21,265 nt of DNA, taken from the IMG/VR virus record IMGVR_UViG_3300018424_000306, positions 1 to 21,265 of that record; one strand, written 5' to 3'. The stretch's first letter is position 1. Each line of letters opens with the position of its first letter. The position numbers and the translations under genes are program-made. Positions 1,050 to 20,471 of this stretch are shown here, one piece after another. The notes below the pieces were generated by a model. It was not told the origin of the DNA. It saw nothing but the letters and a program-made list of their open reading frames with translations, and made no database searches. Source of the stretch: a virus.

Positions 1050-4000
1050 ATGAATACACAGATCTCTTCGCTGATTGAAGATCAACTGCCAGGTTTTATC
1101 GTAGCTCAATACGAGAACTTCCAGAAAGTTCTCGAAAATTATTATGAGCACTTGGAGTCTCCTGGTAATCCTCTAGACATTATTACCAATCTAACTTCGT
1201 ATCATGATATTGACAACTACGAGAAGAACCTCCTTCAGGAGAGGACTTCGTTGTCAACATATTTGAACTCTTCCGCTACAACTATTATTGTAGATGATGC
1301 ATCTTCTTTCCCAGAAAGAAATGGATATATTAAAATTGGCGATGAGATTTGTTTCTATAAAGAGAGAACACAGACCGAGTTTTTAGAAGTTTCTAGAGGC
1401 GTCAGTGGAACCACTGAATTGGGTAGTTTGTATTCATCATCCAAATTTGTATCTACACAAGCCAAAACACATCAGGCAGGTGTTAATGTTGACAATTTGA
1501 GCAACCTGTTTCTATATGCAATAGTAAAATCCTTCGAGAAGCAGTATCTAGAGTCTTTTCCACAGGATTATCTGAAAGAAAATGTAGACAAGAGAACACT
1601 GATTAAGAATATCAGCAACTTCTACAAAGTAAAGGGAACTGACAAGTCTATTCGCTTTATCTTTAATACTATTGTATCAAAGAGTGCTGATGATGTTCCC
1701 ACAACATACTACCCAAAAAATCAAACTTTAAAAGCTTCAACATCTGATTGGGATTCTACATACGTTGTTCAAGCAACAGTTTTATCTGGCGATCCTTTGT
1801 GGTTGATTGGTCAAACTATTGTACAACAATCCGACAACAACTCATCAGTAGACTATGCTTCGGCAGTAGTTGAAAATGTATATTCTGTTGATTCTGATGA
1901 CGGTAATGTTTTATACAATTTAGTTATTAACCCACAGTCATTAAATTCAGACTTTGAAATTCCCCAAAAAACTGTTTTAACCAGAACTGTAGTACCTGCT
2001 TTAACTGTAGGAGACACTATTACCGTAGATTCAACTTTTGGATGGAAGTCTTCTTCTGGGGTTGTTGTAATTAATGGTGAAGTCATTGCATATGAAGGAA
2101 AAAATGCAAGGCAATTTACTATTAAAAAAAGAGGAACTATCACCAGAACTCATGGTGTTGGGGATATAGTAACAAGTTATTCAGCAGTCAAAGCCGTCAC
2201 CCCAGAAGGTGTAGTTTCTTTGTTGGTTTACGGCATTCTAACTGAACTTAATATCGAGACTTCAAATCCATATGCTTCTATTGGAGACAGAGTTGAAGTA
2301 TCTAAACCTGGATTTGAGACTTCGGATCCTATCTTGTATGATGAATCATCCAGAAATTATCGTTGGAAGGTAAACACAACTGGATCATATCCATCAATTC
2401 CTTTAAATCCCTCGGTAGGTCTTTCTCTTCAATCAGTATTAGCGGATATTGGAGCAATTTACGAAGATAATGATTTTTATTATATTGCAACATCTTCATA
2501 TCCATCTACCCAAATTTTAACAGGAAGCATTAGCGAAGATCTATCAGATCCAGAACTTCTTAAAATTGTTCCTAAACAAACGTCAACCACTTCTGAAATT
2601 TACAAAACATCCAGAAGAGATGTTGGTATTTTTGTTGATGGATCGATTGCTTTTGGATATAAAGATGAAGACTTAATTCAATATGGTCCTATTACCAGAT
2701 TTGTAGTTACAAAAAAAGGATCTGGTTATCAAAACCCCCCATTTATTTTAGTAAATGGTCAGTCAGAAAAAGCATACGCTGTTTTGACTGGAGATACTGT
2801 TTCAGAAATTGTTTCTACTTCTACAGACAATTATATCAGCCCACCGACTGTAGAAATTGTTAGTGGTAGAAATGCTGTTCTTGATGCAGTGGTAACTTCT
2901 GGCGAAGTTACCAGTATCAAAATTGTTAACCCTGGTGAATACTACTCTTCACCTCCATCTATTATTATCAGCGATCTTGCTGGAAGAGGTAGATTTGCTG
3001 AATATCGTGCAGAAGTTTCTCCATTTGGTCAAATTACAGAATTAGTGAAAGTTGATGGTGGTAAGTTTTTCACACAAGAAAATGTCAGAGTTACTGTAAT
3101 TCCAGATGCTAATGCTAATTCAGGAACAGCAAGAGCAGAAATTCGTGAATGGGTAAAGAATAGACATTTTGGTGCATCGTTAGATGATAATGGTGGACTT
3201 GTTATTCCTAGTATTGATAGAAATAAAAACTATTATGGTGTAGTTTCTAATCCTCGTCGTTTAAGATTAAGACTTTCTGATAACATTACTACTAGTACAT
3301 TACAAGAATCCATCGGAATTAAGTCACACTCTCCTATTTTAGGATATGCTTATGATGGCAATCCAATTTACGGTCCATATGGATTCTCCGATCCGTTAGA
3401 TGACAATTCTGGCGTTGTTAGAATGCAAAGTGGTTATTCTCTTAAGACGACAAGAGTTGATGGTCCTGTAGATGCTCCTTATGCATTAGGAACTTTTGTT
3501 GATGATTATCAGTGGACACCTACCGTAGATACTGGAAAAACAAGACTTGATGTTAATAACGGAAGATTTTGCGTAACTCCAGAATTTCCTAATGGCGTAT
3601 ATGCATACTTCTTAACCATTGATGCTGTGGGCAATCCTGTTTTCCCATACATTGTTGGAGAAAATTATTATTCACTCCCTGTACAGTCTAATTATGAGTC
3701 TGATGTTTCGCAAAAATCTTTACCAAGATCTGTTAGAAAATTATTCATTCCAGGCACAGAGAAAAATGGAAAGTCTGAAATTGCAATAATTGACGCTGTT
3801 TCAAAAGGTTCTGTATCTTCCGTAATAGTTGAAGACTCACAACCAAACTTCGGTGTTGGTTCAAGAATTTATGTTGATAACTCTGGTACTGGGGGATCTG
3901 GTGCTTCGGGTACAGTGTCGTCAACTTTTGGCAAGAAAGTGCTATCTTTAGAGTCAAAGGACACTAAAGCCACAAAATTAAACACATCCCAATCGTTCTA

Positions 4001-7000
4001 TTCATTCGTTGGAGATATTATCACTCAACCTTCCACTGGTGCTCAAGGAGAATTAATTCGAGATACTATTGAAGAAACCACTTTTGTTCTTCGTGCAGTA
4101 ACAGGAACCTTTGAAGCAGGAAGTGCAATCGAATCTTCTTCAACTGTATTGAACTTGCTTTTATCTCAAAATAGCACATATACTCAAAATGCTACTTTAG
4201 AGCTAGTTTTATTTGAAGATCCTACTAATGTAATAGCAAGTGGTACAGTTTTAAGTGGAACAACAGAACAGAATTCTGTTCGTATTAAAGTTAATAGTGG
4301 CAGTTTTTCTGATTATTTAAATTATGCTGATGGAGAAACCATTTTAAAAAGCAGTGATCTCACTAACACTCCTGGTTCCGAAATTGTTGTAATTAACGAT
4401 TTGAGCTCAAATATTCAAATTAGCAGTGTTGAAGAAAATATTGCTATTCTCGAAACGGACGAGAATCATGATTTTGCTGAAGGTGATACTATTGATATCA
4501 CTATTGATCCCGATGAGGCTTTAACCGAAACCACATATTATGTTTCTAAAAAGAGATATCAAGAAGTTGACCTTATTCCATCTTTCTTTAACGGCAAGGT
4601 AGATGATACTGGTATTGGATCATCTACAATGGTTGGTCTTGGAAGAGACTATGCTGGCGGAGTATATCCAGATGTTGAGTTAATTTTTAGTGATTTTACT
4701 AATGTTAGAGATGGTGTTGGTTCTGCTGGAGATGTTGGTAATGCAAAAGCAACTGTAACAGTAAACGATAATAATTTTGATGGTAGTGGTCAAATTGAAT
4801 CTATTGTGATTACTTCTGGCGGATCTGGATATAATACTGATGACATTTTAACGATCAATCCAGATGCAATTGCAAAGGCAGATCCCACTCAATTTGATAC
4901 AGACGTTGATGCTACTATGGTTCAATTGAATCAAGACATTATTGATTCATATGAACAATTTTACTTTGTAGTCGATCCTGCTGATTATCAAGCTACTTTG
5001 ACGTTCCTTGGTGATTCTGGTGATATCTTTTTAGATGATGATGGAATTGAGTACATATACGTTGAAGCAGACGAAGATAATTCAAGATTTAGATACATTC
5101 AAACTGTTCCATCAGAACAATTGACAGATCAAGATACACTTAATGGTGGTGCTATAGTTATTACTCAAATTGTATCAGATTACCCCATTGGTACTCCATA
5201 TCCTCAATTTAGATTCGATGTGAATGGATCAGAAAATCCAGATTATACTTTGCGAGTGGGATCTACATTCACATTCACTCCCATTTTAGGACACCCCGTC
5301 TATATTGTTTCTGATTACAGAACCAGTGTTTTGGAGGATGGTGTTGCTCTTGATATGGAAGAATATACTGAAGCAGGTGGAGTTACTAACAACGGATCTA
5401 CTGACAATACACAAACTATCACTTTTATTCCGCAAGTTGCTGGTACATATTATTATGTTTGTGTTTCTCACCCAGAAGCAGTTGGAACTCTTACTGTATA
5501 TCCTGCTCCAAGCACAGCAATTCCTTTGGTTTCTGTAAATGCTGTTGGATTGGGCGACCAACGAACAGAAATTGTTTTAGATAGAGTATTTTCGTTGTCT
5601 GTTGGAGATACTTTATCTGTAGGTAGTGAAGTTGTAAAAATTACATCTATTGACAGACTCAATAAAAAACTTGGACTGGAGCGTGGCGTAGAAGGCACCA
5701 GAGCTGTTAATCATCTTCCGAATGCATCAGTAACATCTTATAAACCAAAATATAGATTTACACCTGGAACTCAAATTTTTGGTACAGATGTAAATGATCC
5801 TTATGTGGTTTCTTATGACGAAAAAACACATAAATTGGTTGTAAATTATGGTTACAATGCAGTAAATCCAAGAGAACTCACCACAGTGTCTTCTTTTGCC
5901 GATCATAGCACCCCAGAAAAAATTGTTGCTGTATCTAAAGTAGAGGATCCAATTGATAGACTTCAATTCTCTTTGGATAATCTAAACTTCTTGACTAATC
6001 CTATTGTTGATATTCAGAAATACTATTTTTATAGATTTGATACCAGTCATCCATCAATGCTTGGTTCATATCTTGATGTTTCTACGAGTGCAAACTTTAA
6101 TGTATTCACGGAAGAAAAAGAAGTAGGATTGGCAGAACCAGGAAATCCTGGATCTTACGTTAGAATTAGATTAGGGTATGGTGCAAACATTGGTGATGTT
6201 AAGAGACAGGAAGTAAACTTTACCACTTACTACTATTTCTTAACCAGTTCCGAAACTGATACTGGAGGATCTTTCTTGAGAGTTAAAGATGATCCTTTGG
6301 CTGGAAGAAAAACTGTTGTATACACTACCGATAAAAAACTTGTCTATAATTTATCCGACGTTCCTCAATATGATGGTACAGGAGATATAAGATATACAGG
6401 AAGGTCTATTGGGAAAATTGCTTCGGTTGTATTAGATAATTTGGGAAACAACTATGGATCTCTACCAGTAATAGAAGGTGTTGTTCCTGCAGTTGGATAT
6501 AGAGCTGAAATAGATGCTGTTAGAGATGCTTCATCAAATACAGTAAATGAACTTACGATTACATATGCTGGTAAAGATTATTCAAAACCAAAAGCGGTTG
6601 TTTCTGGAGATGGAGAGGGTTTAAAAATTGATCTTACTGTTGACGCTGGAAAAATTACTTCCGCAAAAGTTGTAAATCCAGGATCTGGATATACTTTCAC
6701 ACCAACCGTAGAAATTATAGAAACTGATAACAAACTATTTTTTGATTCGTCAACTATTGGAATTCCTCAAAGTGTTAAATTTATCAACTATGGTACTTTT
6801 TACTATGATGACGATTCTATTATTTCTTCGTATGAAACTCCACAAGTATTATTACTAACGCAATTTGACTTAAATGCATTTGGTCAAGGTGAATTTATTG
6901 AGCAAAGAGTGAATGGTGTAGTTATTGCTTCTGGTAGAGTTGCTAAAAATGGTTGGACTGTAGGATCTAATGTTTTGAGATTAGTTGATGTCAATGGAGT

Positions 7001-10000
7001 GTTTAGAGAAGGATATACTATTTTTGGATCATCCAAAGGAAAAACTGCCGTTGTCTCTTCTATTGTTAGAACAACATTTGTTCCGACTCTAAAGACTTTA
7101 ACAAGAACTCTTGGTAAATATAATTCTGATAGAGGAAAAGTTAGTTCTTCAAATCAAAAAATTACTGACTCGTTCTTCTATCAAGATTATTCATACGTGG
7201 TTAAAAGCAGAACTCCTATTAAAGAGTGGAGAAATGCTATTAAAGAGACAACTCATCCAGCTGGATTTAAAATGTTTGGCGAGGTTTATCTTGAGTCGGA
7301 AACTGATGTAAGAATGATTGAGAATCAACCAACTTCTCAAAAACTTACATCTTATGTAATTCTTCCTACAACAGCAGTATCTTCATACACAACCAAAAGA
7401 AATATCACCACTTCGGTTGTAAAAGTTGAAGATTCTAGAGTTGTTAGAGGTAGAGGATCTGTTGCTGTGGATTCTTTTGATGAATCTTTAACAAGAGTCA
7501 GAGATATCAAACTCTCACCAGAATTTAATGGTTCATATGATCCTTCTACTGGATTAAAAATTGGTAACAGAACTTTTACCATCACTGATGCTAAAACTGG
7601 GACTGCATTTTCTCCATATAATAATCAAGCATTGATGGTTACCCTTGATGGTGTAGCTCAACACCCAGGATATTCATATAAAATTAATGGTAATCAAATT
7701 ACTTTCTACGAAGCACCATTAGGAAAGAGACAAGAGAATGTTGATGGCGAAATTGTTGATGTTCCTGCACAAAAATATTACATTAGATCGTTTGAGTTTA
7801 GGGATGCATCTGACAACAATAGATATCTCAAAAAATTAAAAGATATTTCTAAAAACTTTGATGGTAGAACTAGAATCTTTGATTTGTTCTATGAAGATGG
7901 ATCTATCGTAAAGACAGATCCTAATGAAAATTTATTGATTTACCTTAATGCTGTACTGCAGCAGGATTCTTATGAAATTAGAAGATTCAGTAGCTCAACA
8001 AAAACTGATAGAATTGTGTTTTCAAAGGCACCTAAAAATTATGATGATTTGTATGAAGGTGGTGTAGCAAAACAATTAGACAATTATGAATATTTCTTTG
8101 GATATAGTGTAGGATCGTATGAGAGACTTTCAATTAATGAGAAGTTAATTCCATTCAATACTAAATCAAATCAATATCAAATTCTCGATAAAGATCGTAG
8201 AGTCAAAAACTTTGATACACCTTTGTATGCATATGTTTTTGTTGATGGAGTTTTACAGAAAGGAGATGGAATTTCTTATAGAGTAAATGGTCCATCAATT
8301 ACTTTCAGAAATCCTTTAAATTATGCAAAACAATCTGATGGGGAATACACTACGGCAAAAGTTGACATTCTCTATTTTTATGGCAAAGATTATGCTCCAA
8401 CTTTAACTGCATTTGATTTTGAAGATGATACTTTCTTCAATAGACCAGAAATTACTTTTACTGGAAATAGAGATTCTTTTGATTCTTGGTATAAGCAAAA
8501 TACCACAAATAAAACTATTGTATATCAAATTGTCAATGGTACACAAAGGGTTTGGGGCGAAGTTGTTGACATTGGACTATCCACTGGCGATGATTGGATC
8601 TTATACTTAAGATCTCAAAATTTAGATATTGTTGATGGTGAAGATGTTTACTTCTCAAGAAGATCTCCTTCTGGAACTCAAGATACTATTAGTTTGTCTT
8701 TTACTAATTTTACATACACATATCCAACATCATCTGTTACTGGCGAGAGAATTATTAACAGAGTAGAATCTAATTATGTTCCTTTCCAGTTTAGCAATCT
8801 TACTGATAATTATGAGTATAGCGGATTTGTTATTAGAGAACATCCCAACTTAAGAGTTGGTGACATGATTCAGATCGATGGCGAAAGTGAAATGCGTCAA
8901 GTTTATAGCATTCCTTTGTACGCCAATCCAAAAGAATATCGCGACGGACAACAAGTTTCTAACTCATATTATAGTAAATTATCTGTCGGATCTTACCAAA
9001 AGGATACTTTTGGTGAAGGACTGGCTGTCACTGCAAACACAGAAAATGGTGTTGTTACCAGTTTAAATTGGAACAAGAGAGATCTGCAAAGATATTTTGA
9101 TTATGGTATCCTACTGAATCCCACAGCATATCAGTATTACACACCACCAACTCTCAACTTTATCCCTGTAGAAAATTCTGGGGGAGGAGCAAAAGCAGAA
9201 GTAGTGGTTTATGGAGGTCAGGTTATTGACCTTGTATTAGTTGATGGTGGATCTGGTTACACCAAACCACCAAGAGTAGTTGTTGGTAGAGGATACAATA
9301 TTCTACGTAACAATAATTACGCCGAATCTTCTCTTAAAATAAAGAGAACTGCAGATACTGGAGTAGTTGGTGGCGTTAAGATGGTATCGATTGTTTCTGA
9401 TATCCCACTATGGTATCGTGAGCTGATTGAACACACCACTACAATGATTTCTCCAAATCCACTGGACTTCAAAGAAATTTTGGTATGTATTGTAACTCCT
9501 GATCCTATATCGGCAGAAATGTCAGGTACTACATATCATGAGCGCAAGACAACGGTACAACTTGAAGCGGAAAACAACAATATTACACATAATGAAACCC
9601 TGATCGAGAGAGATAATCAAATTATCAACAATCTCACATATAGCTCATATGAACATCCTATTACAAAATACTACCAAACAGGAGCATTAGATTTATACAA
9701 CACACCATTGGGCGATACTGATTACCTTTATAGTCACTACCTACCAGGAACATCTGTTAGGGACTTTATTGGATCATTGTATACTGATGTTGGATATTCT
9801 AATGTTTCTGGTATTACAATTGAACAGTTGGGATATTACTTTAATGATGAGTTCGAAACAATTACAGAATGGATAAATGAATATCAAATTACAGATTCTA
9901 ACATCACTACTGGAGGACGAGTATTGAATTTCGGACTTCCATCAATGCAAGAATTGGCATCTTACTTGGACGCCGATTTCTTGATTGGAGATACTGTTTT

Positions 10001-10187
10001 GTATATTCCAGACACTACTAATTTCCCATCATCTGGTAAATTACTTGTAGGGAAAGAAATCATTTCATATACAAGTAAACTTTCCGATCGTTTTATTGGC
10101 ATTACTAGAGGAAATAATGGAACAACAGAAGTTGACCATTCCGCTGGTGATATTTTGAGAACTATCGGTATTGCCACTACTGCTTAA
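1050..10187 (+). CDS. 7: Giant gp7-type baseplate wedge initiator (3045 aa) with very long insertion
   Basis: This protein is about three times the length of T4 gp7 (1032 residues). Residues 1-260 resemble the C-terminal block of T4 gp7: a helical start, then KRTLIKNISNFYKVKGTDKS, IRFIFNTIV and LIGQTI. The next part of that block appears only at residues 2048-2080, where W2060 and H2069-P-A-G-F keep the spacing of T4 RW...HPVGF. Between them lie GxGY beta-repeats (548-642, 1248-1273, 1790-1890), a YHYH-like domain (718-875) and a cupredoxin-like domain (about 1381-1488). After residue 2150 come three NGVxQ-type modules and another GxGY unit (2711-2749). Four RGxxGT modules occur, the last at the C-terminus. 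In T4, gp7 starts wedge assembly by binding gp10 and gp8. By eye only four cysteines occur in the whole protein. The ATG at 1050 follows the gp6 stop by four bases and has no clear Shine-Dalgarno. Virion role is near certain; the gp7 name is likely. Confidence 0.85.
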   Translation: MNTQISSLIEDQLPGFIVAQYENFQKVLENYYEHLESPGNPLDIITNLTSYHDIDNYEKNLLQERTSLSTYLNSSATTIIVDDASSFPERNGYIKIGDEICFYKERTQTEFLEVSRGVSGTTELGSLYSSSKFVSTQAKTHQAGVNVDNLSNLFLYAIVKSFEKQYLESFPQDYLKENVDKRTLIKNISNFYKVKGTDKSIRFIFNTIVSKSADDVPTTYYPKNQTLKASTSDWDSTYVVQATVLSGDPLWLIGQTIVQQSDNNSSVDYASAVVENVYSVDSDDGNVLYNLVINPQSLNSDFEIPQKTVLTRTVVPALTVGDTITVDSTFGWKSSSGVVVINGEVIAYEGKNARQFTIKKRGTITRTHGVGDIVTSYSAVKAVTPEGVVSLLVYGILTELNIETSNPYASIGDRVEVSKPGFETSDPILYDESSRNYRWKVNTTGSYPSIPLNPSVGLSLQSVLADIGAIYEDNDFYYIATSSYPSTQILTGSISEDLSDPELLKIVPKQTSTTSEIYKTSRRDVGIFVDGSIAFGYKDEDLIQYGPITRFVVTKKGSGYQNPPFILVNGQSEKAYAVLTGDTVSEIVSTSTDNYISPPTVEIVSGRNAVLDAVVTSGEVTSIKIVNPGEYYSSPPSIIISDLAGRGRFAEYRAEVSPFGQITELVKVDGGKFFTQENVRVTVIPDANANSGTARAEIREWVKNRHFGASLDDNGGLVIPSIDRNKNYYGVVSNPRRLRLRLSDNITTSTLQESIGIKSHSPILGYAYDGNPIYGPYGFSDPLDDNSGVVRMQSGYSLKTTRVDGPVDAPYALGTFVDDYQWTPTVDTGKTRLDVNNGRFCVTPEFPNGVYAYFLTIDAVGNPVFPYIVGENYYSLPVQSNYESDVSQKSLPRSVRKLFIPGTEKNGKSEIAIIDAVSKGSVSSVIVEDSQPNFGVGSRIYVDNSGTGGSGASGTVSSTFGKKVLSLESKDTKATKLNTSQSFYSFVGDIITQPSTGAQGELIRDTIEETTFVLRAVTGTFEAGSAIESSSTVLNLLLSQNSTYTQNATLELVLFEDPTNVIASGTVLSGTTEQNSVRIKVNSGSFSDYLNYADGETILKSSDLTNTPGSEIVVINDLSSNIQISSVEENIAILETDENHDFAEGDTIDITIDPDEALTETTYYVSKKRYQEVDLIPSFFNGKVDDTGIGSSTMVGLGRDYAGGVYPDVELIFSDFTNVRDGVGSAGDVGNAKATVTVNDNNFDGSGQIESIVITSGGSGYNTDDILTINPDAIAKADPTQFDTDVDATMVQLNQDIIDSYEQFYFVVDPADYQATLTFLGDSGDIFLDDDGIEYIYVEADEDNSRFRYIQTVPSEQLTDQDTLNGGAIVITQIVSDYPIGTPYPQFRFDVNGSENPDYTLRVGSTFTFTPILGHPVYIVSDYRTSVLEDGVALDMEEYTEAGGVTNNGSTDNTQTITFIPQVAGTYYYVCVSHPEAVGTLTVYPAPSTAIPLVSVNAVGLGDQRTEIVLDRVFSLSVGDTLSVGSEVVKITSIDRLNKKLGLERGVEGTRAVNHLPNASVTSYKPKYRFTPGTQIFGTDVNDPYVVSYDEKTHKLVVNYGYNAVNPRELTTVSSFADHSTPEKIVAVSKVEDPIDRLQFSLDNLNFLTNPIVDIQKYYFYRFDTSHPSMLGSYLDVSTSANFNVFTEEKEVGLAEPGNPGSYVRIRLGYGANIGDVKRQEVNFTTYYYFLTSSETDTGGSFLRVKDDPLAGRKTVVYTTDKKLVYNLSDVPQYDGTGDIRYTGRSIGKIASVVLDNLGNNYGSLPVIEGVVPAVGYRAEIDAVRDASSNTVNELTITYAGKDYSKPKAVVSGDGEGLKIDLTVDAGKITSAKVVNPGSGYTFTPTVEIIETDNKLFFDSSTIGIPQSVKFINYGTFYYDDDSIISSYETPQVLLLTQFDLNAFGQGEFIEQRVNGVVIASGRVAKNGWTVGSNVLRLVDVNGVFREGYTIFGSSKGKTAVVSSIVRTTFVPTLKTLTRTLGKYNSDRGKVSSSNQKITDSFFYQDYSYVVKSRTPIKEWRNAIKETTHPAGFKMFGEVYLESETDVRMIENQPTSQKLTSYVILPTTAVSSYTTKRNITTSVVKVEDSRVVRGRGSVAVDSFDESLTRVRDIKLSPEFNGSYDPSTGLKIGNRTFTITDAKTGTAFSPYNNQALMVTLDGVAQHPGYSYKINGNQITFYEAPLGKRQENVDGEIVDVPAQKYYIRSFEFRDASDNNRYLKKLKDISKNFDGRTRIFDLFYEDGSIVKTDPNENLLIYLNAVLQQDSYEIRRFSSSTKTDRIVFSKAPKNYDDLYEGGVAKQLDNYEYFFGYSVGSYERLSINEKLIPFNTKSNQYQILDKDRRVKNFDTPLYAYVFVDGVLQKGDGISYRVNGPSITFRNPLNYAKQSDGEYTTAKVDILYFYGKDYAPTLTAFDFEDDTFFNRPEITFTGNRDSFDSWYKQNTTNKTIVYQIVNGTQRVWGEVVDIGLSTGDDWILYLRSQNLDIVDGEDVYFSRRSPSGTQDTISLSFTNFTYTYPTSSVTGERIINRVESNYVPFQFSNLTDNYEYSGFVIREHPNLRVGDMIQIDGESEMRQVYSIPLYANPKEYRDGQQVSNSYYSKLSVGSYQKDTFGEGLAVTANTENGVVTSLNWNKRDLQRYFDYGILLNPTAYQYYTPPTLNFIPVENSGGGAKAEVVVYGGQVIDLVLVDGGSGYTKPPRVVVGRGYNILRNNNYAESSLKIKRTADTGVVGGVKMVSIVSDIPLWYRELIEHTTTMISPNPLDFKEILVCIVTPDPISAEMSGTTYHERKTTVQLEAENNNITHNETLIERDNQIINNLTYSSYEHPITKYYQTGALDLYNTPLGDTDYLYSHYLPGTSVRDFIGSLYTDVGYSNVSGITIEQLGYYFNDEFETITEWINEYQITDSNITTGGRVLNFGLPSMQELASYLDADFLIGDTVLYIPDTTNFPSSGKLLVGKEIISYTSKLSDRFIGITRGNNGTTEVDHSAGDILRTIGIATTA
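1290..1484 (+). repeat. RGxxGT beta-module, copy 1 of 4 (gp7 residues 81-145)
   Basis: The encoded unit reads as a hydrophobic strand, YIKIGDEICFYKE, then FLEVSRGVSGTTE, and ends at a THQAG motif. The pattern is hxIGxExIxY, then RGxxGT, then HxxG. Related units follow at 2007-2180, 5565-5741 and 9984-10184 in the same gene. Copies are diverged at DNA level, so this is a protein-domain repeat rather than a recent duplication. Confidence 0.7.
2007..2180 (+). repeat. RGxxGT beta-module, copy 2 of 4 (gp7 residues 320-377)
   Basis: The unit starts VGDTITVDSTF, continues GVVVINGEVIAYEG and FTIKKRGTITRTHGVGD. The RGxxGT core is altered to RGTITRT, but the preceding NGEVIAY and following HGVGD keep the order seen in copies 1 and 4. 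Confidence 0.65.
2691..2975 (+). repeat. GxGY beta-repeat cluster in gp7 (residues 548-642)
   Basis: Three consecutive units of about 30 residues share the form strand - G-S-G-Y - P-P - strand: FVVTKKGSGYQNPPFILVNG, then SEIVSTSTDNYISPPTVEIV, then SIKIVNPGEYYSSPPSIIIS. The short linkers contain the preceding GEVTSI-type strand. The same family recurs elsewhere in gp7, once in gp8 and in the 2704-residue protein. It is a beta-rich module common in structural proteins of marine T4-like phages; its precise role is unknown. Confidence 0.75.
3201..3674 (+). other. YHYH-like domain encoded within gp7 (residues 718-875)
   Basis: The region contains SHSPILGYAYDGNPIYGPYG (H760, D769-G-N-P-I-Y-G775), then GRFCVTPEFPNG (C841), YAYF (851-854) and FPYIVGENYY. 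This is the order of conserved elements in the YHYH domain family, whose members have a Y-D-G-x-P-I-Y-G loop followed by a YHYH strand. Here the naming motif reads Y-A-Y-F, so its histidines are lost. The family is of poorly understood function. It sits in the long insertion of gp7 and is likely displayed on the outside of the baseplate, which is an inference. Confidence 0.7.
4791..4868 (+). repeat. Single GxGY beta-repeat in gp7 (residues 1248-1273)
   Basis: The unit reads QIESIVITSGGSGYNTDDIL followed by TINPDA. It has the strand - GGSGY - strand form of the cluster at 2691-2975 but lacks the P-P pair. It lies between the YHYH-like and cupredoxin-like domains. Confidence 0.65.
5190..5512 (+). 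other. Cupredoxin-like domain encoded within gp7 (residues about 1381-1488)
   Basis: The segment has the beta-sandwich pattern of blue-copper proteins: an FRFDVNG strand, LRVGSTFTFTP, then GHPVYIVS with H1415 in the place of the first copper-binding histidine, a variable loop, ITFIPQVAGTYYYVCVSHPE with C1471 and H1474, and a closing GTLTVYPAP strand. Cupredoxins bind copper through His, Cys, His and usually Met. The Met expected three or four residues after H1474 is replaced by A1477-V1478. A three-ligand site could still bind metal, or the fold may be purely structural. C1471 is one of only about four cysteines in 3045 residues. Confidence 0.72.
5565..5741 (+). repeat. RGxxGT beta-module, copy 3 of 4 (gp7 residues 1506-1564)
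   Basis: The unit follows the cupredoxin-like domain directly and reads TEIVLDRVFSLSVGDTLSVG, then SEVVKITSI and LGLERGVEGTRAVNHLPNAS. RGVEGT and the later H match the RGxxGT...H pattern of copies 1 and 4. Confidence 0.68.
6417..6719 (+). repeat. Second GxGY beta-repeat cluster in gp7 (residues 1790-1890)
   Basis: Three units are visible: SVVLDNLGNNYGSLPVIEGV, then ELTITYAGKDYSKPKAVVSG, then SAKVVNPGSGYTFTPTVEII. The third unit is preceded by DLTVDAGKIT, matching the AVVTSGEVT linker before the third unit of the first cluster. The clusters therefore resemble each other over about 95-100 residues, consistent with an ancient three-unit duplication. Confidence 0.72.
7191..7310 (+). other. Second half of the T4 gp7-like C-terminal block (gp7 residues 2048-2087)
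   Basis: The segment reads SYVVKSRTPIKEWRNAIKET followed by THPAGFKMFGEVYL. T4 gp7 has near its C-terminus a segment of the form YYVMKIKS...RWKSDVIRFVHPVGF. W2060 and H2069 keep the nine-residue spacing and HPAGF replaces HPVGF. The T4 sequence is recalled from memory, so a profile alignment is the decisive test. If correct, this marks the end of the large insertion. Confidence 0.7.
7500..8318 (+). repeat. Three NGVxQ-type beta modules in gp7 (residues 2151-2423)
   Basis: Each module has a strand ending in a D/N-G/A-V-x-Q turn, then S-Y and a terminal strand. The three cores are LMVTLDGVAQHPGYSYKING with ITFYEAP, LIYLNAVLQQDSYEIRRF with IVFSKAP, and AYVFVDGVLQKGDGISYRVN with ITFRNPL. The first two begin with FNG or FDGRTRIFDL. 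Such modules (LxVxLNGVxQxPGxxYxVxGxxIxFxxAP) are widespread in phage tail and fibre proteins. They lie after the gp7-like block and probably form extended beta domains. Confidence 0.7.
9180..9296 (+). repeat. GxGY beta-repeat near the gp7 C-terminus (residues 2711-2749)
   Basis: The unit reads AKAEVVVYGGQVIDLVLVDG then GSGYTKPPRVVVGRGY. It is the best match to the family consensus in this protein: glycine-rich lead-in, GGxVxxLxLVxxGSGY, P-P and a valine strand. Confidence 0.75.
9984..10184 (+). repeat. RGxxGT beta-module, copy 4 of 4 (gp7 C-terminus, residues 2979-3045)
   Basis: The last 67 residues form this unit: IGDTVLYIPDTTNFPSSGKL, then LVGKEIISYTS, FIGITRGNNGTTEVDHSAGD. It is the clearest copy and closely parallels copy 1, which has the same SFP/NFP...G lead. 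The protein is thus flanked near both ends by the same module. Confidence 0.72.
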
Positions 10188-10195
10188 AAAGGCAG

Positions 10196-10209
10196 TATAA
10201 ATATAAATA
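10196..10209 (+). promoter_or_regulatory. Two overlapping T4-type late promoters upstream of gp8
   Basis: The 14 bases read TATAAATATAAATA, which is two perfect TATAAATA octamers (10196-10203 and 10202-10209) sharing two bases. TATAAATA is the T4 late-promoter consensus, read by RNA polymerase with the phage gp55 sigma factor and gp33 co-activator; T4-like cyanophages use the same type of motif. The octamers lie in the only sizeable gap before gp8, 33 bases or more upstream of its ATG. Transcription would be expected to start a few bases after each octamer, giving a leader of roughly 25-35 bases. Confidence 0.82.
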
Positions 10210-10241
10210 ACACAGAAATAAACCCGTATCCTTTTTTCTCA

Positions 10242-12119
10242 ATGGCTGCTATCATCTCGGAAAAGTTTAGAATTTTTAATGCGAAGCAGTTCCTAGAATC
10301 TCTGTCAGAGGGTTCTAGCGATACTGGCAGTGACAGAAGTAGAATGTACTTCTTTGTGGGGAGACCACAATCATGGGACTCCTTTTTAGAAATTTCATCT
10401 GTAGACGGAGCTGACAGTTTTGCTGTTGGTGACGGCGTATATGTTGGCGCTTCTTGGGCGGCAGCAACATTCAAGGCAACAGTAACCAAAGTTTTAGAGA
10501 ATTCTTTACTTCTCTCAAGCGTTGGTCCTTTGGTTACCGATTCTCCTGCACTTGGGTCTACGTTGACGGGTTATAATCAGACTACAAATGCAGATAAATT
10601 GGTAACAGCCACTACAGGTGTATATCGATTCTCAACAGAAAACATTCCTCCTGTACCTCTGGACAACCAAACCGAGAAATTTAGTGTCTATGATGACATT
10701 ATTGCAGCAAAGAGAATTACAAGTTCTTATGCAAGACACGTTGTAAGACGTTACAACTGGGATCTAATTAACAATCCCAAGTTTGACATGTATAAGTCCG
10801 ACTACTTTGCTACTCCTGCAGGTGGTGGTCAAATTGGTAAGTCAACTGCTACGGGCGCTACTTCTCTTGCCAATGCAAAATTCTACATCATGAACCAGCA
10901 GTATGAGGTGTTCAAGTGCCTCTACAATGGTGAAGATGAAGCAAATCCATCTGGTGTAAATATTGCTCACGAACCAAAAACTAATCCTCAACCTGGATTG
11001 GGTTCGTATTCTGGTGGAATTTTCACCGCTCCTGATAATTCATATATCTGGAAGTACATGTACACCATCCCAACCGATGATGTGCTGGCTTTCCTCTCCA
11101 CAGATTTCATGCCTATCAATGCTGCTGGAGAAACAACAAGAACTAACACCGAAGCGGCTGCCGTAGATGGCGCTGTACACGTCTCTCTTGTACCAAATAA
11201 AGGAACCCTCGCAGCACCTGTCGCAGGCACCTTCTATGCCCCTGTAGTGGGTGATGGTACGGGTGCTGTTGCCCAGATTACTATTGCTGGTGGAGAGGTT
11301 ACTGCCGTATCTATGACTCAAGTTGGTGCTGGTTATACATATGGATCTATTCCGTTCGTAACTGGTGTTCCTCTTGGAACAAATGGTAGCACCGAAGCAA
11401 TTGGTCTTTTCTCCGATGCTAATCTTACTGTTTCCGAAACTGTAACCGCTACAGACACCCCTGCGGTCGAACCTGTTATGTCACCCCAAGGTGGACATGG
11501 TTCTGATTTTGAGATGGAACTAAACTCCAAGAGAGTTATGACAAATATCCGCCTCACCTTTATCGAAAACGCTGGTGACTTCCCTGTGGATAACGACTTC
11601 CGTCGTATTGGAATTATCAAGGACCCATATGAATTTGGAAGCACTACGTTTGCTACATCAGATACTCTTAACGGTTTGAGAGCAATTAAAATTGATGGCG
11701 CTACTGGAGACTACATTCCTGATGAAATGATTAGTCAAACCGTTACTGGCGGAACAGCATATGGTCAAGTAGTTTCATGGACTCTTGATGCTGGATCTCC
11801 TGTTCCAACACCAAGCACCCCTGGAAGTGGTGTTCTGAAATATATTCAGACTCCATATCTCCATAAAGATACTGGGGTTGTTAGATTGTTTGTCAGCGAT
11901 GCTGCTAACGCTATTGTTGGCGATCAGTCTGGTTCTTCTGGCAATGTGGAAACTGGTTTAGCAGATGGAACCGAATTGATTGGTTCTATTTTTGTTGATG
12001 GTTTGGCAAATCCAGAAATCGAAAATAACTCTGGAGATCTTATATACATAGAGAACAGAAGACTAATTACAAGAGCTGCTGACCAAATTGAGGATATTAA
12101 ATTAGTCATCGAGTTCTGA
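10242..12119 (+). CDS. 8: Baseplate wedge protein gp8, expanded form (625 aa)
   Basis: The protein starts MAAIISEKFRIFNAKQFLES, parallel to the SKFRTEKMLNF start of T4 gp8, followed by FFVGRPQSW (T4 FGRSEPW). It continues with VVRRYNWD (T4 PRRDW), NSYIWKYMYTIP (T4 GYVWEYLFEIP), DFRRIGIIKDPYEFG (T4 GFRQISIITNP) and the C-terminus GDLIYIENRRLITRAADQIE (T4 GEMIYMENR...MDQTEE). The whole gp8 scaffold is therefore present. T4 gp8 has 334 residues; the extra length sits at about 48-130, 305-420 (with one GxGY repeat at 344-375) and 460-597. In T4, a gp8 dimer binds the gp7-gp10 complex before gp6 joins the wedge. The ATG at 10242 is preceded by a pyrimidine-rich stretch, not a Shine-Dalgarno. Only one cysteine is visible. 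Confidence 0.93.
   Translation: MAAIISEKFRIFNAKQFLESLSEGSSDTGSDRSRMYFFVGRPQSWDSFLEISSVDGADSFAVGDGVYVGASWAAATFKATVTKVLENSLLLSSVGPLVTDSPALGSTLTGYNQTTNADKLVTATTGVYRFSTENIPPVPLDNQTEKFSVYDDIIAAKRITSSYARHVVRRYNWDLINNPKFDMYKSDYFATPAGGGQIGKSTATGATSLANAKFYIMNQQYEVFKCLYNGEDEANPSGVNIAHEPKTNPQPGLGSYSGGIFTAPDNSYIWKYMYTIPTDDVLAFLSTDFMPINAAGETTRTNTEAAAVDGAVHVSLVPNKGTLAAPVAGTFYAPVVGDGTGAVAQITIAGGEVTAVSMTQVGAGYTYGSIPFVTGVPLGTNGSTEAIGLFSDANLTVSETVTATDTPAVEPVMSPQGGHGSDFEMELNSKRVMTNIRLTFIENAGDFPVDNDFRRIGIIKDPYEFGSTTFATSDTLNGLRAIKIDGATGDYIPDEMISQTVTGGTAYGQVVSWTLDAGSPVPTPSTPGSGVLKYIQTPYLHKDTGVVRLFVSDAANAIVGDQSGSSGNVETGLADGTELIGSIFVDGLANPEIENNSGDLIYIENRRLITRAADQIEDIKLVIEF
11271..11366 (+). repeat. GxGY beta-repeat in gp8 insertion (residues 344-375)
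   Basis: The unit reads AQITIAGGEVTAVSMTQVGA then GYTYGSIPFVTG, matching the glycine lead-in, GGxVxxVxxxxxGxGY and terminal strand of the gp7 copies. T4 gp8 has no counterpart as far as recalled. A short module shared by two wedge proteins that touch in the T4 baseplate is notable. Confidence 0.72.
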
Positions 12120-12160: not shown

Positions 12161-15100
12161 ATGCCACAGAAGACTAATCTTAACGCTATCCCATATTTTG
12201 ACGACTACGATTCCAGAAAAGACTTCTATAAGGTACTATTCAGACCTTCTTACCCCATCCAGGGTAGGGAGCTGAATAGTATTCAGTCTATTCTACAGAA
12301 TCAGATTGAAAACTATGGTAAGCATCAATTTAAGCAAGGGGACTTGGTTGTTCCTGGAGAAGTTGGTCTTAACACCAAGTTAGATTTTGTAAAGCTATCG
12401 TCTGTTTCCGAAGTTGCTGTTAATATTGATGGCGAAATCGTTTATCAAAAATACGACATTTCTGGTGTTGTAGGTCAGAAAGTTTCTGGTTTATCTTCTG
12501 GCGTAGTTGCTCTTGTTCTTGCTGTAGAAAAAGCAGGAACAAATAATGCAGACACCTTGTACGTTAAATATCTAACAGCTGGTGATAGTGGAGATGAAGA
12601 AACTTTCCGCCAAGGAGAGACTCTGGAGATTGTCGATGGCGTTAATAGTCCTCTTCTCGTTGTCGGCACTGACGGGTCTGTTCTACCTACGAGTATTTCT
12701 GTAATTAATCCTGACACTGGGGTATCTTCTTTTGAAGAAAGCCCTGCAATGGGATATGGATCTGCCGTGAAGGTAGAAGAAGGAATTTATTTTGTTAATG
12801 GATTTTTTGTACGCAATGATGCTGGTCTGATTCTTGTTTCTGGATATAGTCAGACTCCATCCACAAAAGTTGGATTTAATGTATCAGAGTCTATTGTAAC
12901 TCCAGAGCAAGATAGTAGTCTTTATGATAATGCTATTGGATCTTCAAACTTTGCTTCTCCTGGAGCACATCGATTGCAGATCAAGTTGTCTTTGGTCAAA
13001 TACGATTATACAGAGACTCCTGATAAAAACTTTATTCAACTCCTTTCTATTAAAGATGGTGTAGTTGAGCGTCAGGTACAGACTGCCGACTATAGCTTAT
13101 TAGAAGAGACTTTAGCAAGAAGAACCTACGACGAATCTGGTGACTATGTTGTAGATAATTTTGATTCTGAAGTTAGAGAATATTATCAAAGAGAAGGAAA
13201 TTTAGGTGTATATCCACTTGGATCTGATGGAACTGTTAATGGACTAGATCCAACCGAGGCAAGAGATAAATTAGCGTTTTCTATTGGTCCTGGAAAAGCA
13301 TATGTCCGTGGATATGAAATCGTAAACAAAGAGACGAAATATATTGCGTTTGACAAAGCAAGAGAAACTCTATTAAGAGACAACATCACCATCAAAACAA
13401 AAGGTCTCACATCTTTTAATATTACTAACGTATACAACACGTTACCTTTAAATGCTGAAGGTGCAGATTTAACTGCATATCCAACAATTTTCCTCAACGC
13501 TGTTCATAATGATGGAACTATCGCTTCCAATGATTTAGAAGACTCTACAAATTACTTACAGACAGTAAGTAGAAGAGGACAGTTTTTTGATAAAGACACC
13601 GCGATCAAAACAATTTATCTTACTGGTTCTATTGATTTTGGTCTTATTGATGAATCCAGCATCGAGGCAAATACTCCTTCGGACAGAGCAGACTTAAAGA
13701 ACATTTATTTCGTAAACACAAGAACTTCTAGTGGAGCTGTATCAACTGTTGAGAAAGTAGATACTATTTCTTTTGCTAAAGTTACAAGACCCGAAATAGG
13801 AGATACAAATGCACAATTCTTGCAGTTGACTGTTGCAGGAAGAAAAGATTACTTGGATAATCTTTTTATTGAATATGATGATAACGTTAGTATCAGAAGA
13901 AGACTTTTATACAATTCAGAATCTGATGCTCAACAAGAAATTAATGAGATTGGATTTATCAGTGACTACGATCAATCTATCACACCATTAATTGGTGTAG
14001 CAAAACCTAAAGATTTTTCATTATTAAAACGACCCTTTGGATTTAATCAAGATAAGGATATTGTAATTTCAAAAGGCAGACTTGCTTCTGGTGAAGAAAC
14101 TTATAATGGTCTTTTCAACTTATCATATTTTAATCCAATCTTCTTTACAAGGTTGTTAGTTGACTCCACTATTTCTAATGACTTTGCTCCTGGTAAGTAT
14201 ATTACTGGATCTCAAAGTGGAGCATATGGTGTCATTGAAGGAAATAGTAATGGATTCCTCTCTTCTGGCAGAAGTCTTTATGTAAAAACTCTATATGGAA
14301 ACTTCTTACCTGGAGAAACTATTACCAGTGAAGAAGGCGGCATTTTAAGAATTGCCAGAGAAAATACTATTTCTCACTTCGTTGTATCAAGACAAGGTAC
14401 TGGATATCAAACCACCAGCAAAATTTCTCTAAATGGTGTTCAGTTTGAACCTACTGATATTGCTGTGGGGGTAAATGGCGGAACTTTGTATAAGGTAGAA
14501 ATTCAGAACAGAGATGCAATATCTACTGAATATACTACACCTCCATCTGTAACATTCTCTGGCACTAGCACTATCAATGCAACTGTATTGCCAGTATTGT
14601 TCAAAAATACCGTTCTTACATTCTCTGCTCAAAATGTTAAGTCCTTGCATTCTACATACGGCAATGGAAATATTTTCACATCAGATGTAGAAACTGTTGA
14701 CAGTGCTTATGCCGAAATTAAATCAGTAACAGATTTTACTTTTGGTGGTACAAAGGGATACAAATATCTGGAATGTACTGGATTTAGTGCAGATGCTTCT
14801 CGCTATTTGGTTCAAGGAGATATAGTACAGTTTAATGATGATGTGGGAACTATTCACAAATTTGTAGTTGATTATGCCACATCCGCAGAAGGAACTACAA
14901 AATCAAGAATTTATTTGAATGGTTCTCTGCCAGAAAACATTACAGCTTCTTCAGTTGTTAGATTGCGTCCTCGGGTTGAAAACGGGGCATCATCTTCCTT
15001 GGTATTTCCAACTGGCAGTAAAGAAGTTAGTAGTTTAATCAGGACTACAGAAGACACAAAAATTAAGTATTACACAAGAAGAGACTTTGTTGCTACTGGA

Positions 15101-18100
15101 ACTAGCAGTGGTGGTAATGTCACTTTTGCTGCTCAATTAGATTTCGGTACGCAAAGATTCGTTGAGTTTAATGAGAAAGATTTTATCATTAGTATTTTAG
15201 ATAAAGGTGATTCTGATAAGGTAGAAACTGGAGATGTCATTTATATACAAGATGATTTTGTCACTATTTTAAATACGACTGACGAAACTTCTGGTCTTTC
15301 TTCTGGTAGTATTACATTGACTTTCCCAAGCAATTACTTTGGAAGTAATGTAACTAATTTCCCCAAACTGAAGTTGACTGCTACTATTGAGATCTCCAAG
15401 GGTAGACCAAAATTAAAAACAGCTGTTAGAGATAGAAGAATTATTATTAGAGCTGCTGGTGATAGAGTTATTCCTTTAAGAGGTATCAACTACGATGACG
15501 AAAGCACCGAATCATTTAGCTATTCCGATGCTTTTGCAATTAAATATATCTACGAGGGATCTGCTTCTTCTCCCCCAACTGTAGATGTAAATGGTAATTT
15601 GGTTGTAGGAACGGATATTACCGACAGATTTACTTTTGATAATGGACAAAGAGAAACTTTCTATGATGTTTCAAGAATTGTATTAAAACCAGGATTCTCC
15701 CCACCAACAGGTCAGATTGTTGTTGCTTTTGATTACTTCCAACATTCTCAAGGAGACTTCTGTACTGTAGATTCTTACATTCATGAGGCAGGCGTAGTTG
15801 CTGATGAAATTCCATCATTCAACAGCACCGTTTATGGTATCGTAAATCTCAAGAACGTTATTGATTTTAGACCAAAAGTAGATAGCAAGGCTATCATTAC
15901 TGGTTTCCAAGATACTTCTTTACTTTCACAAGCAGATTATATTAGTTTTACTGGTGATGGTGGAGCGGTATCAAGCACGCCTTCTTCTAGTAGAAGATTA
16001 CCTTACACTATGTCATTTAGTGAATCCCAGTATCTTGACAGAATTGATGGTGTGTTTCTTAATAAGAAGGGTGAGTTTGTAATTAAATCTGGAAACTCTT
16101 CTTTAAATCCAACAAAACCAGAAATTATTGAGGATGGTATTCCTCTATACTACATGTATATCCCTGCTTTCACAAAGTCAAGCAAGGACGTAAGGACTAT
16201 TCCTGTCGATAATCGTAGATATACGATGAAAGACATTGGCAAATTGGAGAAGCGTATTGAACGTTTGGAATACTACACCACATTAAGTATTCTTGAACAG
16301 CAAGCTCTCAACATGCAAGTCAAGGACGTTCTTGGAATTGACAAAACGAAGAGCGGTTTTGTTGTAGATAATTTTGAAACTCATCAAGTCGGAAACGTTA
16401 AGTCTTTGGATTATAAGTGTTCCGTTGATCCCCAGCAATCAGTTCTTCGCCCACAATCAAAAGAAGATAGTTTTAATTTAATTGAAGTGAATACAAGGGA
16501 TGATCAAAGAACTATTTCTGGTTACAAGAACTCGAAGGATGTAATTACTCTCCCCTATGAGAGTGTTGCCTACGCAAACAATTCTTTTGCAACAAAGACT
16601 ATCAATCCCAATCCTTTTGTTATTATTCAATATGTTGGCGATGCATCTTTGATTCCTAATATTGATCAGTGGTATAACACTACTGTAGCTCCTTTGGTAA
16701 CAGAGAACAACACAAATCTGTTCTCAATTTTCTTGGGCAAGAGCGACGTAAGAGCAGCGTTTGCAAGCATCTACAATTCTTTTGTAATCAACTGGGTAGG
16801 AATTAATAAATCTTTCTACAATATTAATAGTTTTGGAGATAGCAATAGTAATGTTTCCGATTCTAGCGTAAGTTCTGCGAGTATTTCTAGTTCTTCTAAT
16901 GTAAGCCCACAAAACAATGAGATTGCAAAGGGTGTTGGATATAAGACTATAAATGGAACCAACGTTGCAAATGCGTTGAGATTCTTCGCAAGATCAATTC
17001 CTGTTAAGTTTACTCTCAAGAGATTGAAGCCAAAGACTCAATTGTTTGTCTTCATGGATCAAAGAGATGTTAATCGTTGGGTCAATCCAGACTCCAGATT
17101 TACTGGTGTTGCTGGCAACTCCCTAACCACATTTAACACTCCTCTTACTACAGATGAGTATGGCAACGCAAGTGGTATTATTCTAATTCCAGCAGGTCAT
17201 GCTCCTAGAATGAACACTTCTTGGACTGGAGATATCAATACGTTACAATATGATGAAACGTCAGAGGAACTATATTTCTCTACAGGAATTAAGAATATCA
17301 GATTCACTTCAAGCTCTTCTGATTCTGATAGAAATAATGTTGATACCTACGCAGAAGTTAAATTCTATGCTACTGGTATTTTACCTCAAAATCCAGCATC
17401 TATCATTTCTACAGCACCAGCAATTTTCAAAGCAAATGAGGGTGTACAGTTAATTGATAGCAATACAGAAAATACCGCAAGACCAAATCCCCTTGCACAA
17501 ACTTTCAAGGTGGAAAATTTTGAAGGAGGTATGTTTGCTACTGGCGTAGATCTGTTCTTTGCCAAGAAGAGTTCTACTATTCCTTTGAGAGTATATTTGA
17601 CAAATATTGAGAGTCAAAAACCAAGTAAGTATATTATTCCAGGAACACAAATTACTTTATATCCCGATACTTTCTTGAGAGTATATTCTTCTGGGAATAT
17701 TACCATTAAGCAAGGTGAATACGTGACTGGTCAAAGATCTTTAGCATCTGGACCGATTAGTAAAGTTCTGGATAAAAACAATTTTGAAGTAGTTCCTTCT
17801 AGTAATGGTGAGATTTCTATCACTAATGAGCAAGTGTACACGTTTATCTTGAGTAACCATAATGGTTCTTCTTTTACTGCAAATGAAGATCTTTCACTTA
17901 CTTCAGTAACTCAATTCAACAATTCAAACAATGCTACCGTAGGACTTAAAATTGCTAAAGATTCTGGTAGGGTCACTTCTTTGGATGTAACTAATTTGGG
18001 ATCTGGATATGAAGGTGCAACTATCACTATTGAAAGTCCCCAACTCCCTGGTGGAAGTAATGCCACTGGATCTGCGAAGGTATATAATGGTCAACTTTAT

Positions 18101-20276: not shown

Positions 20277-20471
20277 ATGCAAAGATACGTCAAGGTCGAA
20301 GGACAAGAAGGATTTGTAAGAGACATGACTACAGGGGCAATTATCAACACTGCCCCCAAGTCTTCTCGCAAATCCTTTTCTAATGAGTTCCGAAATGTAG
20401 TCAGTGAAATAAATACTTTGAAGGAAGAAATGTCCGAAATTAAATCCCTACTCAAGCAGTTAATCAAATGA
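20277..20471 (+). CDS. Small conserved phage protein with C-terminal coiled coil (64 aa)
   Basis: The ATG follows the TGA of the upstream gene by one base and the TGA overlaps the next ATG, so all three genes are likely translationally coupled. The N-terminus reads YVKVEGQEGFVRDMTTGAII then NTAPKSS, a pattern recalled from small conserved proteins of T4-like cyanophages (YVKVEG...LVRD...GAIINT). The C-terminal 25 residues, EINTLKEEMSEIKSLLKQLI, have heptad-spaced I and L and should form a coiled coil. There is no signal peptide or membrane segment. Function is unknown; a small virion or assembly cofactor linked to the flanking baseplate and fibre genes is a guess from context. The gene is probably real because of its motif conservation and tight spacing. 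Confidence 0.78.
   Translation: MQRYVKVEGQEGFVRDMTTGAIINTAPKSSRKSFSNEFRNVVSEINTLKEEMSEIKSLLKQLIK

What the first reader, a model, noticed from the sequence alone, without database searches (positions are those of the whole stretch)
10196..10209. Tandem overlapping late promoter TATAAATATAAATA
Two perfect T4 late octamers overlap by two bases, offset by six bases. The two possible start sites would be six bases apart and on nearly opposite helix faces from the viewpoint of a bound polymerase. This may raise late output of gp8 and downstream genes or give two leader lengths. It is the only exact TATAAATA match that I noticed in the window.
Basis: partly seen in the sequence, partly recalled or inferred. 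Interest (0 to 1): 0.55.

Follow-up and report, generated by a model that had tools for sequence, protein, structure and literature searches.

The report
Conserved doubled late promoter at gp8
A marine virus that infects photosynthetic bacteria carries two overlapping copies of its late-gene start signal before one tail-baseplate gene, and many of its relatives keep the same pair at the same gene, which suggests that the doubling is useful rather than accidental.

Summary
TATAAATATAAATA lies at 10196-10209 in the 54-bp gap between a gp7-like gene and baseplate gene gp8 of a cyanomyovirus close to Synechococcus phage S-CAM3. The two octamers are the only exact TATAAATA in the window, but that number alone is not unusual; comparison decides it. 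The doublet precedes gp8 in 75 of 77 usable relatives of one search and in 77 of 89 cluster representatives of one gp8 clade. In the complete genomes of S-CAM3, S-CAM1, S-CAM4 and S-RSM4 the 13-base core occurs once each, always at gp8, against 0.004-0.025 expected. Flanking DNA has drifted. The distal core is perfect in 77 of 89 and never off by just one base, so it looks kept as an octamer. Best reading: two overlapping gp55-type late promoters, the proximal one primary and the distal one a maintained second entry site, raising or securing transcription of gp8 and the giant gene behind it. No transcript ends were available. New variant of a known kind.

The parts
10196..10203 (+). distal late-promoter octamer TATAAATA
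   Evidence: exact match; core perfect in 77 of 89 gp8-clade representatives, no one-mismatch forms
10202..10209 (+). proximal late-promoter octamer TATAAATA
   Evidence: exact match; 89 of 89 clade representatives have at least one octamer within 80 nt of gp8
10209..10209 (+). predicted +1 of the distal octamer (A), inferred from the T4 -13 to -6 placement
   Evidence: position rule from a passage of PMC1524935; not measured
10215..10215 (+). predicted +1 of the proximal octamer (G of CAG), inferred
   Evidence: G in 81 of 87 aligned relatives; 155 putative late-octamer sites without the doublet have a purine here in 78% and C in 3%
10196..10222 (+). conserved block: doublet plus initially transcribed sequence
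   Evidence: column conservation in 87 leaders aligned on the proximal octamer
1050..10187 (+). upstream giant baseplate/virion gene, 3045 aa, gp7-like by position and PHROG 2885
   Evidence: ORF; PHROGs 4406 and 2885
10242..12119 (+). gp8, baseplate wedge subunit, 625 aa
   Evidence: ORF; PHROG 438, E 1.6e-166
12161..20275 (+). giant structural gene (2704 aa), possibly co-transcribed from the doublet (inference)
   Evidence: ORF; PHROG 358; S-CAM3 counterpart annotated 'virulence-associated structural protein'; no octamer between it and the doublet
20408..20415 (+). next late octamer, AATAAATA

Best explanation
It is a pair of overlapping T4-type (gp55-dependent) late promoters. Host RNA polymerase carrying phage gp55, coactivator gp33 and the sliding clamp gp45 scans the DNA and can open it in either of two registers six bases apart. 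The proximal octamer is probably the main promoter (start near G10215, 27-nt leader); the distal one is a maintained second entry site (start near A10209, 33-nt leader). Two sites raise the chance that a passing polymerase initiates, securing supply of gp8 and the 8-kb gene behind it, in a window with no other octamer for about 10 kb on either side. Shown: the sequence, its conservation, its restriction to gp8 in four relatives, and annotated gp55-, gp33- and gp45-type genes in S-CAM3. Inferred: use of both octamers, the start sites, and higher output.
For: Doublet before gp8 in 75 of 77 usable loci and in 77 of 89 clade representatives, with a minimum of 4 state changes on the gp8 tree; median gp8 identity among doublet carriers 63%, minimum 51%; 14 of 20 further loci found with the L340 gp8 have it, down to 39% identity to that query. 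Once per genome, at gp8, in S-CAM3, S-CAM1, S-CAM4 and S-RSM4. Conservation falls off on both sides of the block. Distal 7-base core nearly all-or-none: 0 mismatches in 77, 1 in 0, 2 in 2, 3 or more in 10 of 89. Octamer number is kept even where spacing changes: 84 of 89 clade leaders have 2 or 3 octamers against 0 of 49 representatives outside the clade in the same set. Purine at both predicted starts, as at most putative late sites. gp55, gp45 and gp33-type genes annotated in S-CAM3. No sigma-70-type promoter found nearby.
Against: No 5'-end or expression data. 12 of 89 clade representatives lack the six-base doublet (the 8 of the Syn1/S-PM2 subclade and 4 others), five of them with a single octamer, and 4 of the 20 further loci that are about 65% identical to L340 have one octamer, so the doublet is dispensable. 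Outgroup cyanophages such as syn9 and S-RIM12 have one octamer. In pelagiphage gp8 leaders the doublet is sporadic, 7 of 79. Relatives share descent, so the counts are not independent; the 12 exceptions come from about three lineages.
Confidence: 0.6

Rival explanations
1. Only the proximal octamer is a promoter; the distal repeat merely lengthens the easily melted DNA or contacts the polymerase just upstream, without its own start.
For: All 89 clade representatives keep at least one octamer while the distal copy is gone in 12; the conserved CAG start region is in register with the proximal one.
Against: The distal core is either perfect or clearly gone; no single-base variants among 89 (one or two of its seven bases are shared with the proximal octamer). 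Its first base varies (T 68, C 9 of 77) as the first base of NATAAATA may. In the three representatives that lost the middle octamer (L312, L329, L333) another octamer stands 12 bases upstream.
Confidence: 0.25
2. The conserved 27-bp block is mainly something else: a binding site for a phage or host DNA-binding protein, or a leader RNA element, of which the octamers are a part.
For: Partial conservation continues about 13 bases past the proximal octamer, more than at other putative late sites, where mainly a purine bias at +1/+2 and A-richness show.
Against: Single-octamer relatives keep much of the same start region, and the perfect octamer cores are its most constant feature.
Confidence: 0.1
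3. The doublet is a passive slippage duplication of the hexamer TAAATA with no function.
For: Doublets are sporadic in pelagiphage gp8 leaders (7 of 79), and longer TAAATA runs exist in other viral contigs (L003, L061).
Against: Near-fixation in a clade whose flanking DNA has diverged; no one-mismatch decay forms in 89.
Confidence: 0.04

Closest known systems
T4 late promoter (TATAAATA, -13 to -6; gp55/gp33/gp45)
   Same: Same octamer, before a late structural gene, no -35-type element found, purine at the predicted start.
   Different: Two octamers overlapping at a six-base offset. The T4 genome has no such doublet; its only same-strand NATAAATA pairs within 30 bases are 9 and 13 apart, and no octamer lies in the 110 bases before T4 gene 8.
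Cyanomyovirus late promoter NATAAATA (described for S-PM2 and Syn9; passage of PMC2984593)
   Same: Same motif and same class of phages; the distal first base varies T/C as N allows.
   Different: Same-strand pairs within 30 bases are few, 1 to 3 per genome, in the seven cyanophage genomes examined; syn9 has a single octamer at gp8 and S-PM2 two that do not overlap.

Membership tests
T4-type (gp55-dependent) late promoter | octamer TATAAATA / NATAAATA | tested here: met
   two exact copies
T4-type (gp55-dependent) late promoter | lies a short distance upstream of a late virion gene on the same strand | tested here: met
   46 and 40 nt before gp8; that gp8 is expressed late is taken from T4, not measured
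T4-type (gp55-dependent) late promoter | no -35 element needed; no sigma-70-type promoter at the site | tested here: met
   0 sigma-70-type sites in 9900-10400, mean 1.5 in shuffles
T4-type (gp55-dependent) late promoter | phage encodes gp55, gp33 and gp45 | tested here: inconclusive
   annotated in the relative S-CAM3; the window is a 21-kb record whose long ORFs matched tail and virion families instead
T4-type (gp55-dependent) late promoter | transcript start 13 bases downstream of the octamer's first base | not testable with these tools
   needs 5'-end mapping; only the purine at the predicted position was seen

The most novel reading that the evidence does not exclude
The six-base doublet is a dedicated regulatory device of gp8: two mutually exclusive open complexes on opposite helix faces, kept over large divergence, that let a clamp-tethered polymerase switch start register and so tune gp8 supply (or leader length) to replication. 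That would make promoter multiplicity a selected trait of individual T4-type late genes.
Probability: 0.15. Interest if true: 0.65.

Novelty: new variant of a known kind. Interest (0 to 1): 0.45.

Why it matters
T4-type late promoters are usually treated as minimal single octamers. A doubled octamer kept at one gene across a large phage clade, with natural relatives that have one, two overlapping, two spaced or three octamers, offers a ready-made series for testing how promoter number and spacing set late gene output, and why this baseplate gene needs it.

Tried and rejected
Chance: rejected by the 13-mer expectation and the gp8-specific conservation (order-3 simulation gave 1 occurrence in 140 cyanophage genomes and 2 in 20 for AT-rich T4). 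Host sigma-70 promoter or terminator in 9900-10400: none found. Coding constraint from the gp7 stop codon: the stop lies wholly before the doublet in 59 of 77 doublet representatives and overlaps the distal octamer in 15; 3 could not be tested. The ORF filter left gp8 itself off its list (probably because a minus-strand ORF covers the gap, as), so one search used a same-strand filter; its 155 comparison sites are putative, include the non-doublet gp8 sites of Syn1, S-PM2 and syn9, and count one S-CAM1 pair twice because it lies at both record ends.

Rows dropped before counts: 3 of 80 loci (L144, L151, L160) lack the gp8 start; of 46 new loci, L317; of 80, L394 and L401; L381 as a short gp8; 2 of 89 leaders too close to a contig end for the column table; of 80, L563; of 23 new loci, L620, L641 and L642.

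Papers: passages only were seen of PMC2984593, PMC3037559, PMC2988020, PMC1524935 and PMC7892883; others were seen as search listings. The searches showed no description of a doubled late promoter at gp8 in titles, listed abstract openings or the passages read. Promoter predictions in the supplements of PMC3037559 were not seen, and the syn9 transcriptome paper tried by a recalled DOI is not held, so prior mention there cannot be excluded.

Full report
Observation. The window holds TATAAATATAAATA at 10196-10209 on the + strand: two perfect octamers, offset six, sharing two bases. They are the only exact TATAAATA in 21,265 bases on either strand. Shuffled sequence gives 1.88 on average, so single octamers prove nothing. 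In the looser cyanophage form NATAAATA the window has three sites against 7.8 expected, the third being AATAAATA at 20408; within the window no other octamer lies in the roughly 10 kb on either side of the doublet.

Setting. The gap of 54 bases lies between a 3045-aa ORF (1050-10187; PHROGs 4406 and 2885, gp7-like by position) and a 625-aa ORF (10242-12119) that is gp8, baseplate wedge (PHROG 438, E 1.6e-166). A 2704-aa ORF and a 64-aa ORF follow. The nearest named relative found is Synechococcus phage S-CAM3, 84% identical over a 3-kb query. S-CAM3 is annotated with a late sigma factor (gp55 type), a late-promoter accessory protein (gp33 type) and the sliding clamp (gp45 type). The window record is a 21-kb virus record, so its own copies were not seen.

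Conservation at gp8. I asked for gp8 relatives without regard to the doublet. Of the 80 best viral-contig loci, 77 include the gp8 start; 75 of these have NATAAATATAAATA, its octamers starting 38-57 bases before the start codon, and 2 have a single octamer. With a Syn1 gp8 query, 45 of 46 further loci were usable: 28 with the doublet, 10 with two octamers at other spacing (10-16), 7 with one. With an S-RIM12 gp8 query, 78 of 80 were usable: none has the doublet, 70 have one octamer, 8 none. With the pelagiphage HTVC008M gp8, 79 of 80 were usable: 7 with the doublet, 63 with one octamer, 2 with none, 7 with two or three at other spacings (12-44). With the L340 gp8, 20 of 23 new loci were used: 14 with the doublet, some at 39-50% identity to L340, and 6 with one octamer, of which four are at 65% identity.

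Tree. 213 full-length gp8 proteins from the window, and the isolates clustered at 95% into 138 representatives. The doublet is in 77, all within one 89-member group (SH-aLRT 99 in a quick tree, rooted at the midpoint, with a long-branch warning for S-CRM01); doublet carriers have a median pairwise gp8 identity of 63% and a minimum of 51%. At least four changes of state are needed on the tree. The exceptions inside the group are the Syn1/S-PM2 subclade (8 representatives), a three-member subclade, and L179.

Uniqueness. The 13-mer ATAAATATAAATA occurs once in each of S-CAM3, S-CAM1, S-CAM4 and S-RSM4 (about 195 kb each), every time at gp8. Of the 16 phage records searched, these four have it at gp8, Syn1 and S-PM2 have it once elsewhere, and ten, including syn9 and T4, lack it. 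The order-2 expectation is 0.004-0.025 per genome for the four; order-3 simulation gave 0 occurrences in 80 genomes for the four, 1 in 140 for the seven cyanophages and 2 in 20 for T4. In S-PM2 the one 13-mer overlaps the first bases of head-closure gene gp4 on the other strand and lies just before a gene that precedes baseplate hub gene gp26; in Syn1 it lies at the same locus, inside the annotated start of that gene. Doubling can therefore occur at other late loci, though use as a promoter there is unproved. Sporadic doublets also precede other ORFs in viral contigs (for example L007, L101, L010, L076).

Anatomy. Eighty-seven clade leaders were aligned on the proximal octamer, which makes its constancy in that table a matter of construction; the independent fact is that 89 of 89 representatives have at least one octamer within 80 nt. 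The six bases upstream are 84-93% conserved. The next 13 bases are unevenly conserved, with A at 89% and G at 93% in the CAG. Outside this block the commonest base holds 31-67%. T4 late promoters lie at -13 to -6 (passage of PMC1524935), which puts the proximal start at G10215 and the distal at A10209. In 155 putative late-octamer sites without the doublet, from seven cyanophage genomes, the +1 position is a purine in 78% and C in 3%, which agrees with that rule.

Why the distal copy looks functional. Among 89 representatives its 7-base core has zero mismatches in 77, one in none, two in 2 and three or more in 10; the last two bases of the core are shared with the proximal octamer. Mere AT-richness would be expected to tolerate single changes. 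The exceptions come from few lineages, so this is suggestive rather than a strict test. The first base varies, T in 68 and C in 9 of 77, as the N of NATAAATA allows. Octamer number is kept more strictly than spacing: 73 leaders have two, 11 have three and 5 have one, while the 49 representatives outside the group have one (43) or none (6); pelagiphage leaders, not in that tree, have more than one in 14 of 79. The gp7 stop codon does not explain it: in 59 of 77 doublet representatives the stop lies wholly upstream.

Mechanism. Passages of PMC2988020 and PMC7892883 describe a polymerase that binds first without sequence preference, is proposed to scan while tethered to the clamp, and becomes specific on opening. 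On that model a second overlapping octamer gives a second register for opening, more chance of initiation per pass, and two leaders of 33 and 27 nt. This last part is inference; no transcript ends were available to me.

Limits. The doublet is dispensable in evolution, since a subclade does without it. The finding is a well-supported new variant of a known promoter type, not a new kind of system.

Noticed in passing
10179-10183 and 10192-10196: Five-base inverted repeat ACTGC/GCAGT around the gp7 stop codon, its second arm sharing the first T of the distal octamer; seen by eye also in S-CAM3, L125, L126 and L127, not in S-CAM1.
   Followed up: no
Syn1 NC_015288 at 4453 and S-PM2 NC_006820 at 149641: These two phages, which lack the six-base gp8 doublet, carry their only ATAAATATAAATA at the same other locus, between gp4 and gp26.
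   Followed up: partly
whole genomes of S-CAM3 and S-CAM1: NATAAATA is strongly one-stranded (53 against 3, and 2 against 49), as expected if most copies are promoters of one transcription direction; strand composition was not ruled out.
   Followed up: no
L182, L189, L191, L322, L323, L325-L328, L336 and S-CAM4 (L205): Some gp8 leaders carry three octamers with offsets 12 and 6.
   Followed up: partly
L007 and L101; L010; L076: Six-base doublets before other ORFs of viral contigs; gene identities not determined.
   Followed up: no
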